NCBI GenBank assembly: GCA_003164075.1 | Contig: PLRZ01000153.1 | Location: 6,446 to 16,393 of the forward strand | Length of the DNA stretch: 9,948 nucleotides | Reading direction: 5' to 3' | From: Bryobacterales bacterium | GTDB lineage: Bacteria > Acidobacteriota > Terriglobia > Bryobacterales > Bryobacteraceae | Shown: piece after piece, positions 549 to 9,911 of the stretch | Layout of the letters: every line of letters begins with the position of its first letter | How positions within the stretch are numbered: position 1 is the stretch's first letter | Notes under the pieces: model-generated | Told to the model about the DNA's origin: nothing | Seen by the model: only the letters and a program-made list of their open reading frames with translations | The model's database searches: none | Position numbers and translations under genes: made by a program

Positions 549-1546
549 TCACGACACCGTCAGGATCGCCGCCGGCTGGCTGGGTTTCCCGCGCAGCATC
601 AGCCGGAGTTGCCGGACAAGGTCAAAAAGCATGATCGGGAAAGCGCAGATCAGGCTGACCTGAATCACACCATTCACCCAGGCTGTCACCTTGGTCATAT
701 CCGCAGCCGACAGATTCGGAGCGGCGATCGCGACCCAGTTGCCGACCTTCAGAAGCACGCCCGCCATCAGGATTACTGCCACGTCCAGGCCGATCCGGAT
801 CCCCGAACTCACGCGAGTGCTGGCAGGGCGCAGAAAGCTGAACCCATCCACCAGGGCCCGCGCCAGAGTCACACCCAGAACGGGCCAATAGATCTGACTC
901 CAGATGGCGTTCAGGCCGATGCGAAGCCCTCCCTCGAAAGCGATCTCGCTGCGCTGCCACATCAGACATGCCCAAAAGACGAACGCGGCTATGCCGGTTA
1001 TGAATCCGGCGAAGTCCGTGCGGCGCACGGAGGTCTGGTGCGCCACCGGTACGCGCGGAAGCTTGCGCGGGTCCCAATCGTCGACCCATTTGGCGTGATA
1101 CCGGTCGATCGCCGCGAAAACCACCGTCACGATGCCCACCACCATGAAGCCGGCCCGCCAGGCTTCCACGAAAAACTCGAGGAGCGCCCGTCCCGGATGG
1201 CCCGAGCTGAAAACCGGAGCGAGGAAGATGAAGACAAACAACGGCGCCAGCACCCACAGCAGGACAATCCGGAGCACCAGTTTGTAAACCGGCAGCATCG
1301 CCGGACTGATGAGGCGATGTTCCGGAATGAAGCCGCTGGCCACCCGCGTGGGGGAACCGCGGCGTTTGAGGATGGCCGCCAGATCGGCTTCGTCCAGCGG
1401 ATGACCGAGAGCGGCTTCGCGCTCTTCGATCTGCGAATGCAGTCTTCGGCAAGCTCTGCCAGGAGGTCTTGCTGCTGGGCCTTGGGGAGCCAGAATTTCA
1501 CGGCGTGCAGGTAACGGTCAATGAGATCGTCTTTCGTTGGGGGCAT
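549..1546 (-). pseudogene. HAAS-domain polytopic membrane protein, one apparent frameshift
   Basis: The gene starts at ATG 1546 with AGGAAAAG just upstream, 10 bases after the padR stop. The first 35 codons read MPPTKDDLIDRYLHAVKFWL...AELAED, typical of the HAAS domain found next to PadR regulators. At 1442 the frame breaks. Reading on one base back from 1442 (LHSQIEEREAALGHPLDEA..) restores the family sequence, so a single base, most simply a C in GACCTG, is missing. The restored second part (1442-549, 297 residues) finishes the HAAS helix bundle. It then has about six membrane segments, among them VLRIVLLWVLAPLFVFIFL, MVVGIVTVVFAAI, ITGIAAFVFWACLMW and IGLDVAVILMAGVLL. Full product would be about 332 residues. 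HAAS proteins paired with PadR are thought to be membrane signalling or transport partners, but no substrate is known. The break may be a true mutation or a sequencing error; no slippery sequence suggests programmed frameshifting. Confidence 0.75.
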
Positions 1547-1556
1547 GGTTCTTTTC

Positions 1557-1919
1557 CTATTCGGTTCGGTTCACTGGCGCGGCGAGGATCCGTCCCAGGG
1601 CTGAGTTCATCCGCTGCCACTCCTCCAACAGGTCGGTGAGGACTTCCTCACCCACCGGAGACAAGCGGTAGAAGCGCTTGTTGCGCTTCGCGTCTTCGCG
1701 CCATTGGCTCACCAGCAGGCCCTGGCTTTCCAGGCGGCGGAGCAGCGGATAAAGAGTGTTTTCGTCGATGGCTAAGCCTTGATCGGTCAAGGCTTTGCGG
1801 ATAGCGTAGCCGTACAGTTCGGTGCGCAGTTGGACCAGCACGGCCACCACCAGGCAGCCGCGTCGCAGCTCCAGGCGGAGATTGTCGAAAAGCTCGGAAT
1901 TGGTGCCGTTATTGTGCAT
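1557..1919 (-). CDS. PadR-family transcriptional repressor
   Basis: A 120-residue winged-helix protein of normal PadR length. Visible family features are the first helix and YGYAI (residues 36-40), the recognition helix and wing region DENTLYPLLRRLESQGLL (52-69), and the wing strand KRFYRLSPVGEEVL (81-94), followed by the C-terminal dimerisation helix LTDLLEEWQRM. The start is set at ATG 1919 (MHNNGTNSELF). An in-frame ATG at 1967 would lie inside the promoter -35 box, and AGGAC sits about 8 bases before 1919. The gene is followed 10 bases later by the HAAS membrane protein, the usual PadR-HAAS pair, so both are likely one transcript. The palindromes in its promoter suggest autorepression. 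The effector is unknown. Confidence 0.88.
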   Translation of the reverse strand: MHNNGTNSELFDNLRLELRRGCLVVAVLVQLRTELYGYAIRKALTDQGLAIDENTLYPLLRRLESQGLLVSQWREDAKRNKRFYRLSPVGEEVLTDLLEEWQRMNSALGRILAAPVNRTE

Positions 1920-1930
1920 CACATGCTGTC

Positions 1931-1967
1931 CTATACACACTGTATAGCAAACAGTGTGTGACGTCAA
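1931..1967 (-). promoter_or_regulatory. padR promoter with two overlapping palindromic operators
   Basis: On the minus strand a -35 TTGACG (1962-1967) is separated by exactly 17 bases from a -10 TACAGT (1939-1944). Two inverted repeats overlap the -10. One is CTATACA-CAC-TGTATAG (1931-1947, perfect 7-base arms). The other is ACACACTG (1935-1942) and CAGTGTGT (1952-1959), perfect 8-base arms around 9 bases. Their position would block RNA polymerase, which fits PadR autorepression. The TACA/TGTA halves also resemble BlaI-type sites. Assigning them to PadR is inference from position. Confidence 0.7.
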
Positions 1968-2001
1968 GGATAAATTTGGGGGAAATTAGCTGGCGAGAGA
2001 T

Positions 2002-2108
2002 CCGGAGGTGGGGCAGGTGGTGCTCACCTGCCAGCTTTCCTGTTTGGGCTGCGGACTTGGTTCAGCGCGGGCGGACTGGCAGGCGAGCACCGCCTGCCCC
2101 ACCTCCGG
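2002..2108. repeat. Nested inverted repeat, REP/BIME-like
   Basis: Two 33-base arms (2002-2034 and 2076-2108) are inverted copies with two mismatches, separated by 41 bases. Each arm also folds on itself into an 8-bp stem with a 5-base loop (GGCAGGTG/CACCTGCC at 2012-2032; GGCAGGCG/CGCCTGCC at 2078-2098). The same core and the linker piece TTCAGCGCGGGCGG recur at 9608-9837, so this is a dispersed family. It lies between the padR promoter and the VWA gene. Confidence 0.85.
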
Positions 2109-2228: not shown

Positions 2229-3216
2229 ATGATCGAGGGAATCCCCTGTGCCGCAAGAATTGCGGTGCTGCTGTCCCCATTCTGCGCCGTAGGTTTGGCG
2301 TTCCAGCCCTCTTCAGACGGTCCCATACAAGTCATTCCGCGGGGATTATCCAAGGCGCCGTCCGCCACCGCCACTGTCCTGCGGGTGAACTCCTCCCTGG
2401 TACTCATCCCGGTACATGGCACCACGGCGGGTGGAGCTTCCGTCACCGGTCTGAAGAAAGAAGACTTCGTGCTCTTCGAAGATGGCGTGAGGCAGACCAT
2501 CACCCACTTCGCGCAGGGCGATGCCCCCGTTTCCGCCGGTTTGCTCCTGGACACCAGCGGGAGCATGAAGAACAAGATGGCCAAAGCTTCCGAGGCGGCC
2601 ACCGAGTTCTTCAAATTCGCCAATCCCGGGGATGAGTTCTTCCTGGTGGAATTCAACGGGCGCGCCCGCCTGAAAGTGCCCTTCACGGCGGACTGGTCAG
2701 GAATTGCCGCGGACATCGCCGGCGCCAAGCCTTCGGGCATGACCGCTATGCTGGACGGCATTCGCCTGGCCATGACGCAGATGAAACACGCGCGCAATGC
2801 ACGCAAAGCGCTGGTTGTGCTCTCCGATGGCGGCGACAATTTCAGCCGGCGCAATCTTCGGGAATTAGAGGCCGCGCTGATCGAATCGGACGTGCAGGTG
2901 TATGCCATGGGCATTTTCGACAGCGATTATTCGGTCAGGCACACGCCCGAGGAGCGAAACGGCCCCAGGCTGTTGGACCGGGTGGCCCTGGACACCGGAG
3001 GGCGCGACTTCCCGGTGGCCGGCCTGGACAATCTCCCGGACATTCGGCGTTCAAATCGCCCGCGAGTTGCGCAATCAGTACGTTTTGGGCTTTGCGCCGG
3101 CTACCCGGACGGCCGACGGCAAATTCCATCGCGTCGATCTGAAGCTGGCGACGCCCGAGGCGGATAGCGAACTGCGGACCTACTACCGCCAGGGTTACTA
3201 CGCTCCGGGGCAGTAA
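2229..3216 (+). pseudogene. Secreted VWA-domain protein (VWFA-related Acidobacterial type), frameshifted near 3042
   Basis: The start is ATG 2229, with GGAGGT 11 bases upstream (2212-2217). Residues 1-26 look like a signal peptide (ending GLAF-Q). An N-terminal strand region with GLKKEDFVLFEDGVRQTI (74-91) precedes the VWA domain. Its MIDAS metal site is complete: D108-T-S110-G-S112, T172 in GMTAM, and D200 in LSDGGDN. The frame carries on to a stop at 3165-3167, but family sequence is lost after LPDI (residue 272). From 3043 the +1 frame reads FGVQIARELRNQYVLGF and ends ..YYRQGYYAPGQ at 3216, the normal C-terminus of this family ('ELRNQYVLGY.P'). One extra base or two missing bases near 3042 explain this. 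The intact product would be about 328 residues. Such proteins are probably exported adhesion or metal-dependent binding proteins; the partner is unknown. If the indel is real, the protein has a scrambled tail but an intact VWA domain. Confidence 0.8.
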
Positions 3217-3492: not shown

Positions 3493-3777
3493 ATGGCAGT
3501 AAAATCAACCACAACACAGGAGCGGATCGGCCGCGTGGGCCAACGGCGCCAGGTAGTAATTCCGCGCGAGATGCTTGAAACTCTCAACATCCAGAAGGGG
3601 GATTTCGTGGCGTTCGCCCAAAAGCACAACGGCGTGCTCATCAAGCCCCGCCGCGTGGTTGATCCGGATGACGTACTGACGCCTGAGGAAGCGAAGAAAG
3701 TCCGCCACGGGATGAAGCAGATCAAGGAAGGTCGGTTCAAGCTGTGGCGCGACGTAAAGCATGAACTGGGTCGTTAG
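3493..3777 (+). CDS. AbrB/SpoVT-domain antitoxin
   Basis: A 94-residue protein with a SpoVT/AbrB swapped-hairpin DNA-binding domain at about residues 11-57: RIGRVGQRRQVVIPREML, then LNIQKGDFVAF and GVLIKPRR. The C-terminal part (58-94, DPDDVLTPEEAKKVRHG.., then KHELGR) is charged and would be the toxin-binding tail. AAAGGG lies only 1-2 bases before the ATG, an unusually short spacing, so translation may be weak or nearly leaderless. Its 3' end overlaps the start of the RelE-type gene by 17 bases (3761-3777), which indicates translational coupling of an antitoxin-toxin pair. It probably represses its own promoter through the half-sites upstream. The gene is intact although its toxin partner is broken. 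Confidence 0.85.
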   Translation: MAVKSTTTQERIGRVGQRRQVVIPREMLETLNIQKGDFVAFAQKHNGVLIKPRRVVDPDDVLTPEEAKKVRHGMKQIKEGRFKLWRDVKHELGR

Positions 3778-4038
3778 GATCGCAGAGGACGCGCAACTCT
3801 TTATCGACGGCCTCTGCCCGCTAAGGCTAGGCGGCAAGTTTCCCGCAGTATCACCCAGATGGAGCAGGATCCGTTCCAGGGCGATGTGAAAGCGCTCCAG
3901 GGCAAGGCGTGGAAGGGCTACTACCGCAAACGCACGGGCGACTATCGGATCATTTTCTTTCCCCATCGCGAGCAGCGGATCATTGACATAGCATGGGTTG
4001 TGCTGAAATCCGAGACGACCTATCGACAAGGTTCTTAG
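3761..4038 (+). pseudogene. RelE/ParE-type toxin gene, frameshifted
   Basis: From ATG 3761 the frame reads MNWVVRIAEDAQLFIDGL, then family sequence is lost and a stop follows after about 43 codons. In the frame entered at about 3814 it continues PAKARRQVSRSITQMEQDPF and later GYYRKRTGDYRIIFF to a stop at 4036-4038. Joined, these give about 91 residues, the normal RelE size, including the Arg/Tyr-rich strand (KRTGDYRIIF) and a final IDIAWVVLKSETTYR strand typical of mRNA-interferase toxins. Removing one CT from CCTCTGCCC at 3811-3819 restores the frame (DGL-PAKARRQ). No good start codon exists for the second frame alone, so no active toxin is expected as sequenced. It could be a truly inactivated toxin or a base-calling error. 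Confidence 0.8.
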
Positions 4039-4418
4039 GCTTCTGCGCAGAAATTCGTGGAAGTGCGGAATTGACGGGCCTCGCCGGCGCCGCGCCACTT
4101 GCCGGCCCAGCTCACCAGCGGCAGGGTACCGTTCTGAGCGTCCGCATGGAATCGCGTTGGTGAGGCGGCCGCACTGCGTGGGATCGTTCTTCACCACCGG
4201 AAATGCCGGCAGGGGATTCCGGAAGGTGTAAGTGGTTTCGTCCGAATCGACATCGGCTACTCCGCCATCGGCGGCGCCGGCGGTCTTCCCGCAGTAATAG
4301 CGCCAGTCGATCTTGCCGCTGCCCGGAAGCCCGGTGATTTCCGCGAAAGCGTAAGACGTGGGATGGAGTTGGCCGGTGCCGGCTCGAAGAGGCGGTCCTG
4401 CAATACATAGAGCCCCGC
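4035..4418 (-). pseudogene. Relic of a phosphoesterase (phospholipase C / acid phosphatase-like)
   Basis: Three pieces in different minus-strand frames together match the middle of the phosphoesterase family that includes bacterial phospholipase C. From about 4418: GLYVLQDRLFEPAPANSIP. After a frame change near 4360: GKIDWRYYCGKTAG, then CGRLTNAIP. After a second change near 4150: FHADAQNGTLPLVSWAG, running to a TAA at 4035-4037. The phrases 'YVLQDR.FEP', 'I.WRYY' and 'F..D..NGTLP.VSW' are characteristic. The N-terminal half with the family's catalytic Asn/Asp motifs is absent; the SPT gene begins its stop at 4480. The relic is therefore truncated and twice shifted. Its stop overlaps the stop of the convergent RelE-type gene. 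I recognise the family by eye only. Confidence 0.55.
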
Positions 4419-4479: not shown

Positions 4480-5718
4480 TTACCGTTCGATTCCCAGTTC
4501 GTCGGCGACGCGCACCAGGGTATCGATGAGGCGCTCCACGTGAGCTTCCGTGTGTGCCGCGGTAACCGAAATGCGCAGCAGATTCTGTGCGGCGGCCGGG
4601 CGAAGCACCGGGTTGATGTAGATGTCTTGCTCCAGCAACTCTTTGCACAGACGGCAGAGATCCAGTTCCTTCTCAATCACCACCGGCACGATGGCCGTCT
4701 CACCGGGCAATACGGCGAAACCGCGGGCCCGCAATTCGTCGCGCAGGAACGAGGCGATGCGCAGCAGGTGCTGGCGGCGTTCGGGCTCCTTCTTGACGAT
4801 CTGCAGAGCTGCACCTGCCGCGGCGACGGAAGCGGCCGGCAAACTGGCGGAGAAAACGAAAGCCCGGGCGGTGTGTTTCAGGTAGTCTACTACGGCTCGT
4901 TCAGCGGCAATGAATCCGCCGACCGACGCCAGAGACTTGCTGAAAGTGCCCATCACGATATCGACTTCGTCCAGCACGCCCAGGTGCTCGGCGGCGCCGG
5001 CGCCGGTGGGCCCCAACACGCCGATGCCATGGGCCTCGTCGACGTAAACCCGGGCGCCATACGGCTTGGCGAGTTTGAGGATGCCCTGCAGCTCGGCGAT
5101 GTCGCCTTCCATGCTGAAGACGCCTTCCGATACGATGAAAATCTTCTCTTCCGGAGGACAGTTTTCCAGGCAGCGTTCGAAATGGTCCAGGTCGTTGTGA
5201 CGGAACCGCATGGTGCGCGCCGCCGACCGTAGCGCGCCCTCCACCAAGCTGGCGTGCAGGTTGTGGTCACAGATCATCACATCGCCCTTTTCGGTGAGCG
5301 CCGAGAGCGTGGCGTAGTTGGCCTGAAAACCGGTGCCGAAAATGATGGCGGCTTCTTTGTGCACGAAGGCGGCCAGTTCCTCTTCCAGTTTGACGTGGAT
5401 GTCGAGCGTGCCGTTGAGAAGCCGGGATCCGCTACATCCGCTGCCATATTTCCGGATAGCTGTGGCGGCCGCCTCTTTCACCTTGGGGTGGTTGATGAGA
5501 GAGAGGTAGTCGTTCGAGCCGAACATGAGCACCTTGCGCTTGCCCATGCGGACTTCGCCTGGTCCGCAGCCTTCGCGCTCGCCGAAGACTTCGAAATACA
5601 TGTAGAGTCCAGCGGCTTGCAGATCACTCGGACGAGTGAAATTACGGCATTTCTCGAAAATGTCGTTCGATGCGCTGCCCTTCTTTTTGCCGGTAATGTC
5701 GCTAGTCGATAAGCGCAT
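4480..5718 (-). CDS. spt: Serine palmitoyltransferase (first step of ceramide synthesis)
   Basis: A 412-residue PLP enzyme of the alpha-oxoamine synthase family. It should condense L-serine with an acyl thioester to 3-ketosphinganine, releasing CO2. The conserved path is visible: FGSNDYLSLINHPKV (66-80), KYGSGCSGSRLLNGTLDIH (90-108), the cofactor-stacking His in DHNLH (H155), DEAHGIG (D227, H230) and the PLP lysine in GTFSKSLASVGGF (K261). The 'TFSKS..S.GG' form around the lysine is typical of SPT, whereas AONS and KBL usually carry 'TLGKA'. The ATG at 5718 follows the bCerS-like stop by 5 bases with GAGGA just before it; an in-frame ATG at 5733 lacks a ribosome site and overlaps that gene. 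It is the last gene of the operon. The closely related KBL/BioF functions remain possible, but the neighbours (bCerS- and CerR-like genes) favour SPT. Confidence 0.85.
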   Translation of the reverse strand: MRLSTSDITGKKKGSASNDIFEKCRNFTRPSDLQAAGLYMYFEVFGEREGCGPGEVRMGKRKVLMFGSNDYLSLINHPKVKEAAATAIRKYGSGCSGSRLLNGTLDIHVKLEEELAAFVHKEAAIIFGTGFQANYATLSALTEKGDVMICDHNLHASLVEGALRSAARTMRFRHNDLDHFERCLENCPPEEKIFIVSEGVFSMEGDIAELQGILKLAKPYGARVYVDEAHGIGVLGPTGAGAAEHLGVLDEVDIVMGTFSKSLASVGGFIAAERAVVDYLKHTARAFVFSASLPAASVAAAGAALQIVKKEPERRQHLLRIASFLRDELRARGFAVLPGETAIVPVVIEKELDLCRLCKELLEQDIYINPVLRPAAAQNLLRISVTAAHTEAHVERLIDTLVRVADELGIER

Positions 5719-5723
5719 GGTCC

Positions 5724-6839
5724 TCAGTTCCATTCGTAAATTCGGTAAGTTTTGTACCGTTTTGCCCCCATCACCTCCAGGGAGCGATTCATCAGTACAT
5801 TGTCTTCCAGTATCCAGGACATTTCGCAGTCGCCATAGCCCAGCTTCCTGGCATTGCGGACCAGAGTCGCATAAAAACCCGCCGCAAGGCCCGAGGCGCG
5901 GTACTCCTCCACCACCCCCAGTGCAAGAACCCGAACATTTTTGATCAAACGTTGATAATACAAGATTTTGAAGATGCCTGTCGGGAGCAATCTCCCCCTG
6001 GCCGGTTTCAGCGCCTGGTTGATGTCGGGCAAAGCAAGTGCGAAACCCACGACGCGGCCCTCCACCTCGCCGATGAGTACCAATTCGGGCTTGAGAATCT
6101 GCTTCATCTCCTTGCCCATAAGAGCGAATTCCTCTTTGGACATCGGAATGAAGCCCCAGTTGCGGGCCCAGGCCGCCCCGTACACTTCCCAGACTTTGGC
6201 GACCTCCGCAGCGAAATTCTTCATGTCGATGGGACGAACCGTGACTCCGCTTTTTCCCAGGACCTTGTCGGCCACCCGGCCGATCTTGTTCATGTCGATG
6301 GTATTGGCATTGCTGAGCCAGGCGTACAAGTCCTTGGACTTGCGCAATCCCACCTGCTCCATGAGAGCCGGATAATACTCCGGATTGTAGGGCATCATGA
6401 CCATGGGGTCGGAATCGAAACCCTCCACCAGCATGCCGCATTCGTAATTGGTGGACGGATTTACGGGGCCGCGCAAAAACCTGGCGCCGCGTTCGAATAC
6501 CCAGCGGCGAGCGCGCTGGAGCAGTGCCTCGGCGACGACAGGGTCGTTGACGCACTCGAAGAACCCGAAGAAGCCGGCGTTCTCCTCATGAAAACGATTA
6601 TGCGCCTTATCGATGATTGCCGCCACACGGCCCACCACCTCGCCGTCCCTCTGGGCGATAAAAAGCTCGGTTTCGGCGTTCGCGTAAAACGGATGTTTGG
6701 CCTTGTCCAGCAGTTCCTTCACGGCGATGCGCAACGGCGGCACCCAGTGGGGAAGGTCGCGATGCAGACGGTAAGGCAGCTCCACGAACTGGTTCAACGC
6801 CTTCGGATTGTCAACCGCAATTACGTCGATTCCTCCCAA
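5724..6839 (-). CDS. bcerS: GNAT-fold acyltransferase, probable bacterial ceramide synthase
   Basis: A 371-residue cytosolic protein. The N-terminal half carries LPYRLHRDLPHWVPPL (21-36), NPSTNYECGMLVEGFD (127-142) and PYNPEYYPALME (150-161). The C-terminal half has a GNAT fold with an acyl-thioester loop near EEYRASGLAAGFYATLV (311-327) and the closing EDNVLMNRSLEVMGAKRY (345-362). This family, often annotated only as 'N-acetyltransferase', recurs beside SPT genes. The Caulobacter enzyme bCerS, which N-acylates the long-chain base, belongs to it as far as I recall. The start is TTG 6839: the TGA of the preceding PAP2 gene lies in the same frame two codons upstream, no ATG or GTG is available, and AAGGGG is 8 bases before the TTG. 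A stronger GGGAGG lies inside the first codons and leaves a slightly later non-canonical start possible. The gene is 3 bases from the PAP2 stop. Confidence 0.72.
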   Translation of the reverse strand: MGGIDVIAVDNPKALNQFVELPYRLHRDLPHWVPPLRIAVKELLDKAKHPFYANAETELFIAQRDGEVVGRVAAIIDKAHNRFHEENAGFFGFFECVNDPVVAEALLQRARRWVFERGARFLRGPVNPSTNYECGMLVEGFDSDPMVMMPYNPEYYPALMEQVGLRKSKDLYAWLSNANTIDMNKIGRVADKVLGKSGVTVRPIDMKNFAAEVAKVWEVYGAAWARNWGFIPMSKEEFALMGKEMKQILKPELVLIGEVEGRVVGFALALPDINQALKPARGRLLPTGIFKILYYQRLIKNVRVLALGVVEEYRASGLAAGFYATLVRNARKLGYGDCEMSWILEDNVLMNRSLEVMGAKRYKTYRIYEWN

Positions 6840-6842
6840 ATT

Positions 6843-7718
6843 TCATGCCCCTTTTGACAATTTCTTGTAAACCGCCGGACCCGCCGTCGCCACGACGAAC
6901 GCCGCCGTGGCGCCAGCCGCCAGATCGACCGTGTAATGGTATCGAAGATAAACTGTAGCAAAAATGAGGAACGGAGTGTAAGCCAAATAGATCCTGAACC
7001 ACCGCTTCGATACCACCCGGCTGCCCCAGCAGGCTAGCAAGGTCAGTTCCGTGTGGCCGCTCGGAAAGCAGTCGTAATGGTACGATTCCAGCTTGTCGAG
7101 CCCGTCCTGCATGCTCCGGAATAACCACAATCCCTGCAAGGGGATGTGCTGCAAACTCGCAAGCAAATACCGCGGCCCCCGCGCCGGCACGAAAATGTAG
7201 CCTGCGTACGAGACCATGTAGCCCACCGCAATTAAAAACGCATAATATTGGAACTCTACGAAACGGCCCTTGCGCCACAACAGCAGCGCCACCAATATGA
7301 CGGCTGGAAGAAACAATGTGTACAGCAGTTGCTCCCACTCGGTGAGCGCCCGCGACTGAATCCGCTCCAGCCAGACGCAGGGATTGGCACTCCAGATCCG
7401 GAAATCCAGATTGGCCAGCCACCGGTCCGAGACTTGCCGGGAAATGTCGTTTTGCCGCACGGCCGGAATGAGCAGGGCCATTTCTTTGTAGAAGTAACCT
7501 ACGTATGGCAGCGGATACCAGTTCCGGAAAAGCCAGGAGGTGCGGTTGGGCCGCTTCACCTCGAAGACGACCAGGGCCGCCCCCAGAATATGCCAGACCA
7601 GCAGGCCGGGCGCCTGTGGAAGCGTGTTCCACCAGCCGAGGACCACCAGGCCGGTCAGAAAAAAATAGCCCAGGATTACCTTGTCGACAGGCCAGAAACG
7701 TGTGCCGGCAGGCATCAT
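6843..7718 (-). CDS. PAP2/Aur1-like membrane phosphotransferase or lipid phosphatase
   Basis: A 291-residue inner-membrane protein with about six hydrophobic helices, for example VILGYFFLTGLVVLGWW, LLYTLFLPAVILVALLLW, FLIAVGYMVSYAGYIFV and FRIYLAYTPFLIFATVYL. Three catalytic PAP2 signatures are seen in order: PARGPRY (178-184), FPSGHTE (H222) and YLRYHYTVD (H261, D265), the last resembling the Aur1/inositol-phosphorylceramide synthase subgroup. The chemistry is transfer of a phosphoryl headgroup to, or removal of phosphate from, a lipid. Given the operon, ceramide headgroup transfer or ceramide/long-chain-base phosphate hydrolysis is the most reasonable inference. The start is uncertain: ATG 7718 (or 7715) precedes the first helix, but TTG 7763 would leave only 16 bases to the upstream stop and two neighbours use TTG. 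Neither has a clear ribosome site. Confidence 0.8.
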   Translation of the reverse strand: MMPAGTRFWPVDKVILGYFFLTGLVVLGWWNTLPQAPGLLVWHILGAALVVFEVKRPNRTSWLFRNWYPLPYVGYFYKEMALLIPAVRQNDISRQVSDRWLANLDFRIWSANPCVWLERIQSRALTEWEQLLYTLFLPAVILVALLLWRKGRFVEFQYYAFLIAVGYMVSYAGYIFVPARGPRYLLASLQHIPLQGLWLFRSMQDGLDKLESYHYDCFPSGHTELTLLACWGSRVVSKRWFRIYLAYTPFLIFATVYLRYHYTVDLAAGATAAFVVATAGPAVYKKLSKGA

Positions 7719-7779
7719 GAACGCCGGCCCAATGCCGCAGCGCCGGAAGGGCAATCGCCCCAACCCGCACCACGGAATC

Positions 7780-8745
7780 TTAGTATTTGAGCCAACCGGC
7801 CTCCTTGTACCAAGCTAGGGTTTTGGCCAAGCCGGCGGCGAGCGGCGTTGGCGCTTCAAAACCGAAGTCCGCGGCAGCGCGCGTAGGGTCACACGTCCAA
7901 AACCGGCAACAAGCTTCCGCGACCTTCTCTCGCGAGATGATAGCAGGATTCCGCGAAATGCGCGACCACATTTCGCTGAAAAATGCCACCGTATTGGCCG
8001 CCGCCACCGGTACTCGCAGCGTTCGCGGCCGGCAACCCATGATTTGCGCCGCGGTGGCGCCCAATTCCTGCCAGCTCGCCGGCTTGCGGCAGGTCAGGAA
8101 ATAGGTTCGGCCGGCGGCATTGCCGGCGCGCGCCGCGGCGCACAGGCCATCCGCCAGGTCTTCCACATAAATCGCGCTGAACCAGCGCTCGCCACCGGCT
8201 ATCTCCAGCACCAGCCCTTGGGCGATGGCTCTAAACATCTGGAAAACGTCGGTATCGCGCGGGCCATACACCACCGGCGGCCGGATAATCACGGCATCCG
8301 GAGCGAACCGGCGCGCAATTCTTTCGCCCTCCAGTTTGGATTCGCCGTAGCTGCTCACGGGATGCGGTACGGCATCCTCGTCCAGAGGGCGCCCATCGGG
8401 ACTCGGTCCGATGGCTGCCAGGCTGCTGACGTATACCAGGCGGATGGAGCGGCCTTGGAGGGCGCGTACCAGGGTTTCCGTGGCGCGGGCGTTGCCGGCG
8501 AAGTAATCGGCCTTGGATAACGCCTTGGTGACGCCCGCCAGGTGGATCACGGTATCCACCCCGTCGAGCGCCCGGTCCAAGCCCTGCCCGCCGGTCAGAT
8601 CGGCAAGGGCCGTTTCTACTCCCGCGGGCAAGCGGCGGGCGTTCGTAGTGGGCCGCACCAGACAGCGCACAGCCTCACCGCGAGCGCCGAGTTTTTCCAG
8701 AAGATGGCTGCCGACGAAGCCGGTGCCCCCGGTGACCAGTATCAT
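7780..8745 (-). CDS. cerR: NAD(P)-dependent epimerase/dehydratase family, probable ceramide reductase
   Basis: A 321-residue extended short-chain dehydrogenase. It begins with the Rossmann motif TGGTGFVG (5-12, GxxGxxG). Further on are the DLTGG acidic turn (49-53), VIHLAGVT (66-73), VYVSSLAAIG (104-113, catalytic Ser) and the active-site pair in SSYGESK (Y133, K137), then IIRPPVVYGP in the substrate-binding half. The length and extended C-terminus fit the NAD-dependent epimerase family to which Caulobacter CerR belongs. In that pathway it would reduce the 3-keto group of the oxidised ceramide after N-acylation. The ATG at 8745 shares its A with the stop of the upstream DUF3047-like gene (TAATG), implying translational coupling. 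By sequence alone a sugar epimerase, sterol dehydrogenase or flavanone-reductase-like role is equally possible; the CerR call depends on the SPT and bCerS-like neighbours. Confidence 0.7.
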   Translation of the reverse strand: MILVTGGTGFVGSHLLEKLGARGEAVRCLVRPTTNARRLPAGVETALADLTGGQGLDRALDGVDTVIHLAGVTKALSKADYFAGNARATETLVRALQGRSIRLVYVSSLAAIGPSPDGRPLDEDAVPHPVSSYGESKLEGERIARRFAPDAVIIRPPVVYGPRDTDVFQMFRAIAQGLVLEIAGGERWFSAIYVEDLADGLCAAARAGNAAGRTYFLTCRKPASWQELGATAAQIMGCRPRTLRVPVAAANTVAFFSEMWSRISRNPAIISREKVAEACCRFWTCDPTRAAADFGFEAPTPLAAGLAKTLAWYKEAGWLKY

Positions 8746-9395
8746 TATTCCGGCGTGCTACGGAAGGCCACTTCTCCGAAGTAGCTCTCCGCCACGGTGC
8801 CGGTATGCTGGGAATTAATCTGCAGTCGCAACCCCTTCACGCGCGTTACCGGCCGGCCGAAGGCGTGTTCGTAATCCGCCGCCACATTGTGGCTTTCCGC
8901 GACCCAGTGGTTGGCATCCCCGAAGCCAGACTCGCAGACCACCGCGAAAATGTGCACAAACGGGAAGGAGTTGGCGGATTGGGCGATGCCTTTGGGCGCG
9001 TTGGTATCCCAGATGTAAGCGATCACGCGATTGTCGTCGAAGGCCACCAGTACCTGGGCAGCCTGATCGTCGGTAGTAGCCCGCCGGAAATCGCCGCCGT
9101 TGGGCAACTGCGTCACCTTCCAGCGCCAAGTGAGGTATGGCATCTGGGCGGGATATACGTTCACCTTGTGCTCCAGCCCGAAAGAAGCACCGACACTTTT
9201 CAAGTGCAGGCACGGGCCGGAGTTATCCTTGCAGACACCGAATTCGGGCTGGCCATGATTCACCTTTACCTGCCAATCCATGGGCGGATGACCCGCATCC
9301 CAAGCGGCGGTATTTAAAACGACGAGGGCTAATGGCGAACTGCTGGCCTGAAAAATGAACACAAAAATAGCGCAAACTACTAAAAACGTCTTCAA
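8745..9395 (-). CDS. Secreted DUF3047-like protein, first gene of the ceramide operon
   Basis: A 216-residue protein with a signal peptide (MKTFLVVCAIFVFIFQASS) and no other membrane segment, so probably periplasmic or cell-surface. The body shows features I associate with DUF3047: LTWRWKVTQLPNGGDFR, a following DDQAAQVLVAF strand, IAYIWD, VVCESG and the NVAADYEHAFG stretch near the C-terminus. No catalytic motif is recognised and the function is unknown. The rich Trp/aromatic strand pattern suggests a beta-sandwich, which is inference. The start is TTG 9395: an in-frame TAG lies four codons upstream, no ATG or GTG precedes the signal peptide, and GCGAGG is placed 4 bases before it. It overlaps cerR by one base, so it appears to be co-transcribed with the pathway. 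Confidence 0.7.
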   Translation of the reverse strand: MKTFLVVCAIFVFIFQASSSPLALVVLNTAAWDAGHPPMDWQVKVNHGQPEFGVCKDNSGPCLHLKSVGASFGLEHKVNVYPAQMPYLTWRWKVTQLPNGGDFRRATTDDQAAQVLVAFDDNRVIAYIWDTNAPKGIAQSANSFPFVHIFAVVCESGFGDANHWVAESHNVAADYEHAFGRPVTRVKGLRLQINSQHTGTVAESYFGEVAFRSTPE

Positions 9396-9607
9396 TGAAC
9401 CTCGCTACGAAAACTAACCTTGAGACTCCATTATTACTATCGCATGAAAGCGGCGGGTTTTGCCACACTCGGGCTGCCTGCCGGTGCTGCTGCCGTTGGG
9501 TTTAAATGCGTAGTTTCCGACGTTTTTGCCGACCAAAGGCTCTGAACTCCCGAGGCACCCCGCCGTTTCGGGTGGCTTGGGAAAATGCGCTGACCCATTC
9601 CTTGCCC
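9396..9607. other. Upstream region of the ceramide operon, no gene seen
   Basis: The operon promoter should lie here, on the minus strand. A -10-like AATAAT (reverse complement of 9430-9435) sits about 35 bases before the TTG start, but no matching -35 is visible, so the promoter is unresolved. A variant of the dispersed motif, TCTGAACTCCCGA, lies at 9541-9553. GGAAAATG and CCATTCC within 9580-9601 are the left arm of an inverted repeat completed at 9850-9871 (19 of 22 positions match). Confidence 0.4.
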
Positions 9608-9675
9608 GGTGGGGCAGGCGGTGCTCGCCTGCCCTCTATCCTATTCGAGCAGCGCGCCAAATTCAGCGCGGGCGG
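9608..9675. repeat. Direct repeat copy A (68 bases) of the palindromic family
   Basis: This stretch matches 9736-9803 at 66 of 68 positions. It opens with the hairpin GGCAGGCG/CGCCTGCC around a 5-base loop (9613-9633) and ends TTCAGCGCGGGCGG, as the repeat at 2002-2108 does. The right arm begins (CTGGCAGGTGAGC) but is cut off at about 9690, where the dispersed motif TCAGAACTCC starts. Confidence 0.85.
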
Positions 9676-9694: not shown

Positions 9695-9911
9695 TCAGAA
9701 CTCCTGATGTCGTGGAATTTGCAGTGAGCTTCGCAGGTGGGGCAGGCGGTGCTCGCCTGCCCTCGATCCTATTCGAGCAGCGCGCCAAATTCAGCGCGGA
9801 CGGGCAGGCGGCACCGCCTGCCCCACCTGCGAAGCTCTCGCCATCGAAAGGAATGGCTCAACCCATTTTCCCCGCCAGGCAGAAATTGCGCGGCGACATC
9901 AGGAGTTCTGA
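9695..9911. repeat. Nested inverted repeat unit (217 bases) containing copy B
   Basis: The outer ends are a perfect 18-base inverted pair: TCAGAACTCCTGATGTCG at 9695-9712 and its reverse complement at 9894-9911. Inside lies a second, perfect 27-base inverted pair (9726-9752 and 9811-9837) separated by 58 bases, which includes direct-repeat copy B (9736-9803). Each inner arm also contains the short GGCAGG../..CCTGCC hairpin (9741-9761, 9803-9822). I see no transposase and no target-site duplication next to the outer ends, so a non-autonomous element is possible but unproven. Confidence 0.8.

What the first reader, a model, noticed from the sequence alone, without database searches (positions are those of the whole stretch)
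4480..9395. Compact ceramide (sphingolipid) operon in a probable acidobacterium
SPT, a bCerS-like GNAT acyltransferase and a CerR-like reductase lie together on one strand with gaps of 3 and 5 bases, a 16-61 base gap and a 1-base overlap. These are the three core enzymes of the bacterial ceramide route known from Caulobacter, here joined in one unit with a PAP2-like enzyme and a secreted DUF3047-like protein. The motifs are seen directly. The pathway is known from Caulobacter; the assignment here is inference from family and neighbourhood. The absence of an ACP or acyl-CoA ligase in the window raises the question of the acyl donor.
Basis: partly seen in the sequence, partly recalled or inferred. 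Interest (0 to 1): 0.8.

Follow-up and report, generated by a model that had tools for sequence, protein, structure and literature searches.

The report
Soil acidobacterial operon for headgrouped ceramides
Five neighbouring genes in a soil acidobacterium look like a complete kit for making ceramide and then fixing a phosphate-linked headgroup, probably inositol, onto it, so some common soil bacteria may make fungus-like membrane sphingolipids.

Summary
The five-gene unit is real. On the minus strand, in transcription order, it reads DUF3047, NAD-dependent reductase, PAP2, GNAT, SPT (9395-4480), with the spacings reported. All five are found in this order in 35 of 44 close acidobacterial loci; six of the other nine are cut by contig ends. 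SPT, reductase, PAP2 and DUF3047 track the GNAT across 42 genomes of one order. SPT falls in the SPT group. The GNAT belongs to the SPT-linked YghO family. The reductase is CerR-like by linkage, but it is not shown to belong to the NDUFA9-like alphaproteobacterial CerR branch. Main correction: the 'PAP2-like enzyme' is best read as an inositol-phosphorylceramide (IPC) synthase-like transferase. Its best solved-structure matches are IPC synthase/AUR1 over nearly its whole length, with the H/H/D triad aligned. MIPS occurs in 22 of 22 strong-GNAT genomes, and PIPS-like genes, below model cut-offs, in 4 of 4 operon genomes examined. DUF3047 is an export-signal beta-sandwich of unknown role. Ceramides in an acidobacterium are already published (title only seen). 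No dedicated ACP is conserved nearby.

The parts
8745..9395 (-). DUF3047 protein, 216 aa, N-terminal hydrophobic export signal, beta-sandwich fold
   Evidence: PF11249 2.2e-30; N-terminal 17-residue hydropathy 2.26; AlphaFold model pLDDT 81; fold matches to beta-sandwich and carbohydrate-binding domains; follows the operon across genomes
7780..8745 (-). CerR-like NAD(P)-dependent epimerase/dehydratase-family reductase, 321 aa, Rossmann motif at residue 1, no signal peptide seen
   Evidence: PF01370 2e-35; tree with SPT- or GNAT-linked reductases of other phyla; co-occurrence with GNAT
6843..7763 (-). PAP2_3 membrane protein, 306 aa (start probably 7718), IPC-synthase/AUR1-like ceramide headgroup transferase
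   Evidence: PF14378 1.2e-13; model pLDDT 91; best PDB matches 9vj4 IPC synthase and 9ivc Aur1-Kei1; profile match to AUR1 with H/H/D aligned
5724..6839 (-). bCerS-like GNAT-fold N-acyltransferase (YghO family), 371 aa
   Evidence: PF00583 1.1e-5; 32-35% over 99% to Sphingomonas and E. coli YghO-family proteins, which lie near SPT, ACP and a reductase; tree
4480..5718 (-). serine palmitoyltransferase (alpha-oxoamine synthase), 412 aa, PLP lysine K261, alanine 30 residues on
   Evidence: Best PDB matches Sphingobacterium SPT 8guh/3a2b at 1.7e-99; SPT group support 99/96; diagnostic residue

Best explanation
This is a self-contained sphingolipid operon of Bryobacterales-type Acidobacteriota. SPT condenses serine with a housekeeping acyl-CoA or acyl-ACP to 3-ketosphinganine; the GNAT N-acylates it; the reductase reduces the 3-keto group to dihydroceramide (order of the last two steps open). 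The PAP2_3 membrane protein is an IPC-synthase-like transferase that moves a phospho-headgroup, most likely phosphoinositol from phosphatidylinositol, onto the ceramide. The exported DUF3047 beta-sandwich acts on the periplasmic side with the finished lipid, binding or handling it. Shown here: gene content, order, co-inheritance, family and fold placement. Inferred: every catalytic activity, the inositol headgroup, and the whole role of DUF3047.
Against: No activity is shown. Identity to AUR1 is only about 20% and the profile score modest (28 bits); the phosphatase LpxE follows at 25 bits, though over 65 residues only. MIPS is also in 16 of 20 GNAT-less genomes, so inositol supply is not specific to the operon, and the four PIPS-like proteins all score below the model cut-offs. 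L015 and L022 keep the operon without the reductase. G142 and G045 keep a PAP2-GNAT pair with no SPT above 41% identity found in the genome. The reductase does not join the alphaproteobacterial CerR branch. Four strong-GNAT genomes with PAP2 lack DUF3047 (G045, G084, G135, G142), so DUF3047 cannot be essential everywhere.
Confidence: 0.7

Rival explanations
1. The same ceramide operon, but the PAP2 protein transfers another headgroup (phosphoethanolamine or phosphoglycerol) to ceramide.
For: The fold and triad fix the reaction type better than the donor. MIPS is not clearly enriched (22 of 22 vs 16 of 20). Bacteroides makes ethanolamine phosphoceramide by an enzyme for which a homology search found no match (PMC8791184, passages).
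Confidence: 0.2
2. The PAP2 protein is a lipid phosphatase (for example on ceramide-1-phosphate or a glycerophospholipid) and the operon's product is free ceramide.
For: Pfam calls it only PAP2 superfamily. LpxE, a phosphatase, scores nearly as well as AUR1 in the profile search, over a short stretch. The one published acidobacterial report names ceramides in its title (Halamka 2024, seen only in reference lists).
Against: The SR pair before the last histidine of PAP2 phosphatases (recalled motif; visible in YodM) is replaced by A-T here, the T in 47 of 47; LpxE itself has ER there. Structural matches to phosphatases are weaker and align 160-182 residues rather than 257-269.
Confidence: 0.12
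3. The operon makes a related amino-lipid (sulfonolipid from cysteate, or another alpha-oxoamine lipid), not a serine-derived ceramide.
For: Cysteate acyltransferase is a relative (28eh at 4.7e-69), and SPT scores below the NCBIfam SPT equivalog cut-offs (457.7 vs 640).
Against: Position K+30 is Ala as in SPT, not the Lys of SulA (PMC9304779, passages). The protein falls in the SPT group (no SulA row was in that tree).
Confidence: 0.05

Closest known systems
Caulobacter bacterial ceramide pathway (Spt, bCerS, CerR)
   Same: Three core activities predicted; SPT and GNAT families fit
   Different: The window reductase ranks HpnA (below cut-off) and 3wj7 first, not the NDUFA9-type complex I homologue that the Sphingomonas protein ranks first; no conserved linked ACP; a headgroup transferase and DUF3047 sit inside the operon. 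In Caulobacter CerR is periplasmic (PMC11087976, passages); the window reductase has no visible signal peptide
Bacteroides thetaiotaomicron BT1522-1526 inositol phosphoceramide cluster
   Same: AUR1-like IPC synthase; MIPS and PIPS-like genes in the genome
   Different: In Bacteroides the IPC synthase is grouped with PI-making genes; here it is grouped with the ceramide-making genes, and no CDP-alcohol transferase motif of the expected size lay beside MIPS in 8 regions read
Ceramides of Solibacter usitatus (Halamka et al. 2024, Front. Geochem.)
   Same: Acidobacterial ceramides, related lineage
   Different: Only the title was seen (not held), so its gene content, and whether it covers PAP2 or DUF3047, could not be compared
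E. coli yghO locus and Sphingomonas spt locus
   Same: SPT-type gene, YghO/bCerS GNAT and an epimerase-family reductase near each other
   Different: They carry ACP, LptF/LptG permeases and, in E. coli, a fatty acyl-AMP ligase; no PAP2 or DUF3047 is annotated in the stretches shown

Membership tests
Serine palmitoyltransferase | Groups with SPTs apart from BioF, KBL and HemA | tested here: met
   22-row group, support 99/96, 31-row tree; the characterised PDB sequences themselves were not in the tree, and two SPT-like proteins near GNATs (L073, L108) fell outside the group
Serine palmitoyltransferase | Alanine, not lysine, at the SulA Lys281 position | tested here: met
   K261+30 = Ala; criterion from PMC9304779 (passages)
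Serine palmitoyltransferase | NCBIfam equivalog cut-off (an annotation threshold, not a biochemical feature) | tested here: not met
   Best SPT model 457.7 bits against a cut-off of 640; none of the 25 models listed passed its cut-off, and an SPT model ranked first
Serine palmitoyltransferase | Serine + acyl thioester condensation | not testable with these tools
   Needs enzyme assay
bCerS (YghO-type GNAT) | Member of the SPT-linked GNAT family | tested here: met
   37-row group, support 96/94, with Sphingomonas and E. coli proteins, excluding two weak paralogues; GNATs with no SPT seen nearby are interspersed in it
bCerS (YghO-type GNAT) | Clade with the characterised Caulobacter protein | not tested
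   No Caulobacter sequence was fetched; Sphingomonas used as proxy
CerR | Linked to and co-inherited with SPT and GNAT | tested here: met
   18 of 22 vs 0 of 20 genomes
CerR | NDUFA9-like branch of alphaproteobacterial CerR | tested here: inconclusive
   About 30% identity; separate branch in a weakly resolved tree. Best PDB match 3wj7, complex I homologue 9g83 ninth, whereas the Sphingomonas protein ranks 9g83 first
IPC synthase (AUR1 type) | Whole-length AUR1 fold | tested here: met
IPC synthase (AUR1 type) | His/His/Asp catalytic triad | tested here: met
   H237, H276, D280 aligned with AUR1 H255, H294, D298; invariant 47 of 47. That these are AUR1's catalytic residues is recalled
IPC synthase (AUR1 type) | Phosphoinositol transfer to ceramide | not testable with these tools
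   Needs assay or lipidomics

The most novel reading that the evidence does not exclude
Many Acidobacteriota make fungus-like inositol phosphoceramides from an AUR1-type synthase encoded beside their ceramide genes. DUF3047 is a new dedicated periplasmic component of bacterial sphingolipid metabolism, binding or handling the finished headgrouped lipid on its way to the outer membrane.
Probability: 0.4. Interest if true: 0.72.

Novelty: new variant of a known kind. Interest (0 to 1): 0.52.

Why it matters
A soil lipidome study that treats ceramides as common in fungi and less so in bacteria asked whether Acidobacteriota make them (PMC9969633, passages). If this operon makes inositol phosphoceramide, soil sphingolipid budgets need a further bacterial source, and AUR1 inhibitors such as aureobasidin might touch soil bacteria (speculation). 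DUF3047 also gains a testable pathway, and the reductase offers a second case for the open question of reaction order and compartment raised for Caulobacter (PMC11087976, passages).

Tried and rejected
Own-genome search: no genome is held for the window. Rfam at gathering thresholds: no match. PDB sequence search with GNAT and PAP2 as single sequences gave only chance-level matches, with DUF3047 none. Dedicated ACP or ligase: outside the five genes and ORFs overlapping them, no family recurs in more than 9 of 44 loci with up to 10 kb flanks (overlapping ORFs judged by their positions, not one by one); an ACP-motif scan of the 44 loci and the window gave three hits, of which L028 and L032 look like ACP (86 aa) over 3 kb upstream. 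No search for acyl-CoA ligases was run. PI synthase beside MIPS: a CDP-alcohol motif scan of 8 MIPS regions gave one chance-like hit in L127; PIPS-like genes were then found elsewhere. A fifth CDP-alcohol gene type (L147) gave only weak matches. DUF3047 on plasmids: 11 records, 22-30% identity, their neighbourhoods not examined. PAP2 on plasmids: one weak Prevotella match. DUF3047 fold: CFAP20 15.9, glucuronyl C5-epimerase 15.7, CIA30/NDUFAF1-type 12.5 (identity of that chain recalled), hyaluronan-binding module 12.4; a CIA30-reductase partnership was considered and is too weak to claim. Promoter and terminator scans were at chance. Literature: 10 searches. None of the listed papers was on inositol phosphoceramide in Acidobacteriota or on DUF3047 with sphingolipids; several listings were capped, and Halamka 2024 and Stankeviciute 2022 are not held.

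Full report
Observation. The window carries five minus-strand genes in transcription order DUF3047 (9395-8745), reductase (8745-7780), PAP2 (7763-6843, start probably 7718), GNAT (6839-5724) and SPT (5718-4480), with a 1-base overlap and gaps of 16-61, 3 and 5 bases. Pfam supports each name. The host is acidobacterial: the VWA protein passes TIGR03436, the PadR protein matches TIGR03433 below its cut-off, and the nearest relatives of the GNAT are in acidobacterial genomes, most of them titled Bryobacterales, Bryobacteraceae or Solibacter.

Conservation. Eighty genome loci were fetched with a GNAT alignment (321 relatives were found and the best 80 kept). In the 44 closest, all titled as Acidobacteriota, the order DUF3047-reductase-PAP2-GNAT-SPT is present in 35 (one search showed 34 because a display filter hid PAP2 in L004). 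Two of the 44 (L013, L017) come from one genome bin. In five of the 35 SPT runs into a contig end, and in L042 the reductase and GNAT matches are split. Of the other nine, six are cut by contig ends, L015 and L022 have no reductase, and L035 shows no DUF3047. Outside the five genes and ORFs overlapping them, no family recurs in more than 9 of 44 loci. The unit therefore travels as a unit in varying neighbourhoods.

Co-inheritance. Of 150 genomes drawn from the order of L001's genome (G003), 25 have a GNAT match and 22 a strong one. I compared the 22 with 20 GNAT-less genomes, the first listed, and 3 with weak GNAT matches (45 in all). PAP2 above 300 bits: 21 of 22 versus 0 of 20; the one miss, G116, is at a contig end. 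SPT at 70% identity or more: 20 of 22 versus 0 of 20, the best there being 39% (G134 and G151 partial). Reductase at 47% or more: 18 of 22 versus 0 of 20, the best there being 32%. DUF3047: 17 of 22, all on the GNAT's contig, versus 1 of 20. The 3 weak-GNAT genomes have none of the four at these levels. In G084 and G135 the reductase lies on another contig than the GNAT, so the genes co-occur even when not seen side by side. Completeness of these genomes is not given, so absences may be gaps in assemblies. Genomes of one order are related, so these counts are not independent events.

SPT. The best PDB relatives are Sphingobacterium SPTs, ahead of BioF, KBL and HemA. In a 31-row tree the window protein lies within a 22-row SPT group (99/96) apart from BioF, KBL and HemA. 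Two SPT-like proteins near GNATs (L073, L108) fell outside that group. The window protein has alanine where cysteate-using SulA has lysine (PMC9304779, passages). It fails the NCBIfam equivalog cut-offs.

GNAT. It belongs to the YghO family: 32% to a Sphingomonas and 35% to an E. coli protein over 99% of its length. Both lie near an SPT-type gene, ACP and an epimerase-family reductase. In a 39-row tree all but two weak paralogues form one group (96/94) holding SPT-linked GNATs of many phyla; 11 rows with no SPT seen nearby are interspersed in it. No Caulobacter sequence could be placed.

Reductase. It groups with SPT- or GNAT-linked reductases of other phyla at about 28-42% identity, but the tree is poorly resolved, unlinked paralogues also sit among them, and the Sphingomonas and E. 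coli CerR-type proteins form their own branch. PDB ranking differs too: the Sphingomonas protein ranks the complex I homologue 9g83 first; the window protein ranks 3wj7 first and 9g83 ninth. It starts at the Rossmann motif with no visible signal peptide, so it would be cytoplasmic, while Caulobacter CerR was reported periplasmic (PMC11087976, passages). The Sphingomonas protein also starts at its Rossmann motif, so this point is weak.

Phylum-wide. PAP2 relatives at 1e-40 or better occur in 38 of 297 genomes sampled from the phylum. Of the 30 loci read, 16 carry SPT, GNAT or reductase matches within about 1.5 kb, one of them L001's own genome; five of the 16 (L167, L168, L170, L171, L173) rest on a weak reductase match of 28-31%, leaving 11 firm. 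The flanks are too short to judge the rest. The link between the IPCS-like protein and ceramide genes is therefore wider than the operon with DUF3047.

DUF3047. It has an export-like N-terminus and a beta-sandwich model (pLDDT 81) whose best matches are CFAP20 and glucuronyl C5-epimerase, followed by a complex I assembly factor and carbohydrate-binding modules. This suggests ligand binding but no specific role. Its co-inheritance makes it a candidate partner on the periplasmic side; this is inference.

Known versus new. The bacterial ceramide route and its broad distribution are known (PMC11334938, passages and section 20). Ceramides in Solibacter usitatus are published (Halamka 2024, title in reference lists). 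Bacterial IPC is known from Bacteroides. New as far as my ten searches show: an AUR1-type synthase inside an acidobacterial ceramide operon, and DUF3047 as a conserved member. Whether Halamka et al. already described these genes could not be checked.

Noticed in passing
window 2229-3216 (+): VWA-domain gene of the acidobacterial TIGR03436 family appears frameshifted: its C-terminal part continues in another frame (ORF 2902-3216). Could be a sequencing error or a decayed gene.
   Followed up: partly
window 3493-4040 (+): MazE/AbrB-type antitoxin gene (3493-3777) followed by a frame that reads like a RelE/ParE-type toxin (recognised by eye, no search), i.e. a possible type II toxin-antitoxin pair.
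   Followed up: no
window 2000-2108, 9601-9675, 9726-9837: About 75-nt palindromic repeats between genes, three direct copies with inverted arms, REP-like in look.
   Followed up: no
window 549-1967 (-): PadR-family regulator (1557-1967) next to a membrane-protein-like ORF with no Pfam match (549-1343).
   Followed up: no
L015:8465-12353 and L022:6827-10752: Operons that lack the reductase; in G093, which by matching coordinates holds the L022 operon, no close reductase was found. They may make keto-ceramides or use another reductase.
   Followed up: partly
L100 (G142, same locus as L054 by its matches) and L101 (G045): PAP2-GNAT pairs with no close SPT beside them; the best SPT matches elsewhere in these genomes are 40-41%.
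   Followed up: partly
L109:1-7122: E. coli record: yghO lies with an SPT-like gene, ACP, epimerase, fatty acyl-AMP ligase and LptF/LptG, i.e. it looks like a ceramide-type locus.
   Followed up: no
L052:3552-8153 and L053:1-3524: In a TA06 and a Latescibacterota MAG the order is SPT-GNAT-reductase-PAP2 (PAP2 25-27% identical), so the pairing may reach beyond Acidobacteriota.
   Followed up: no
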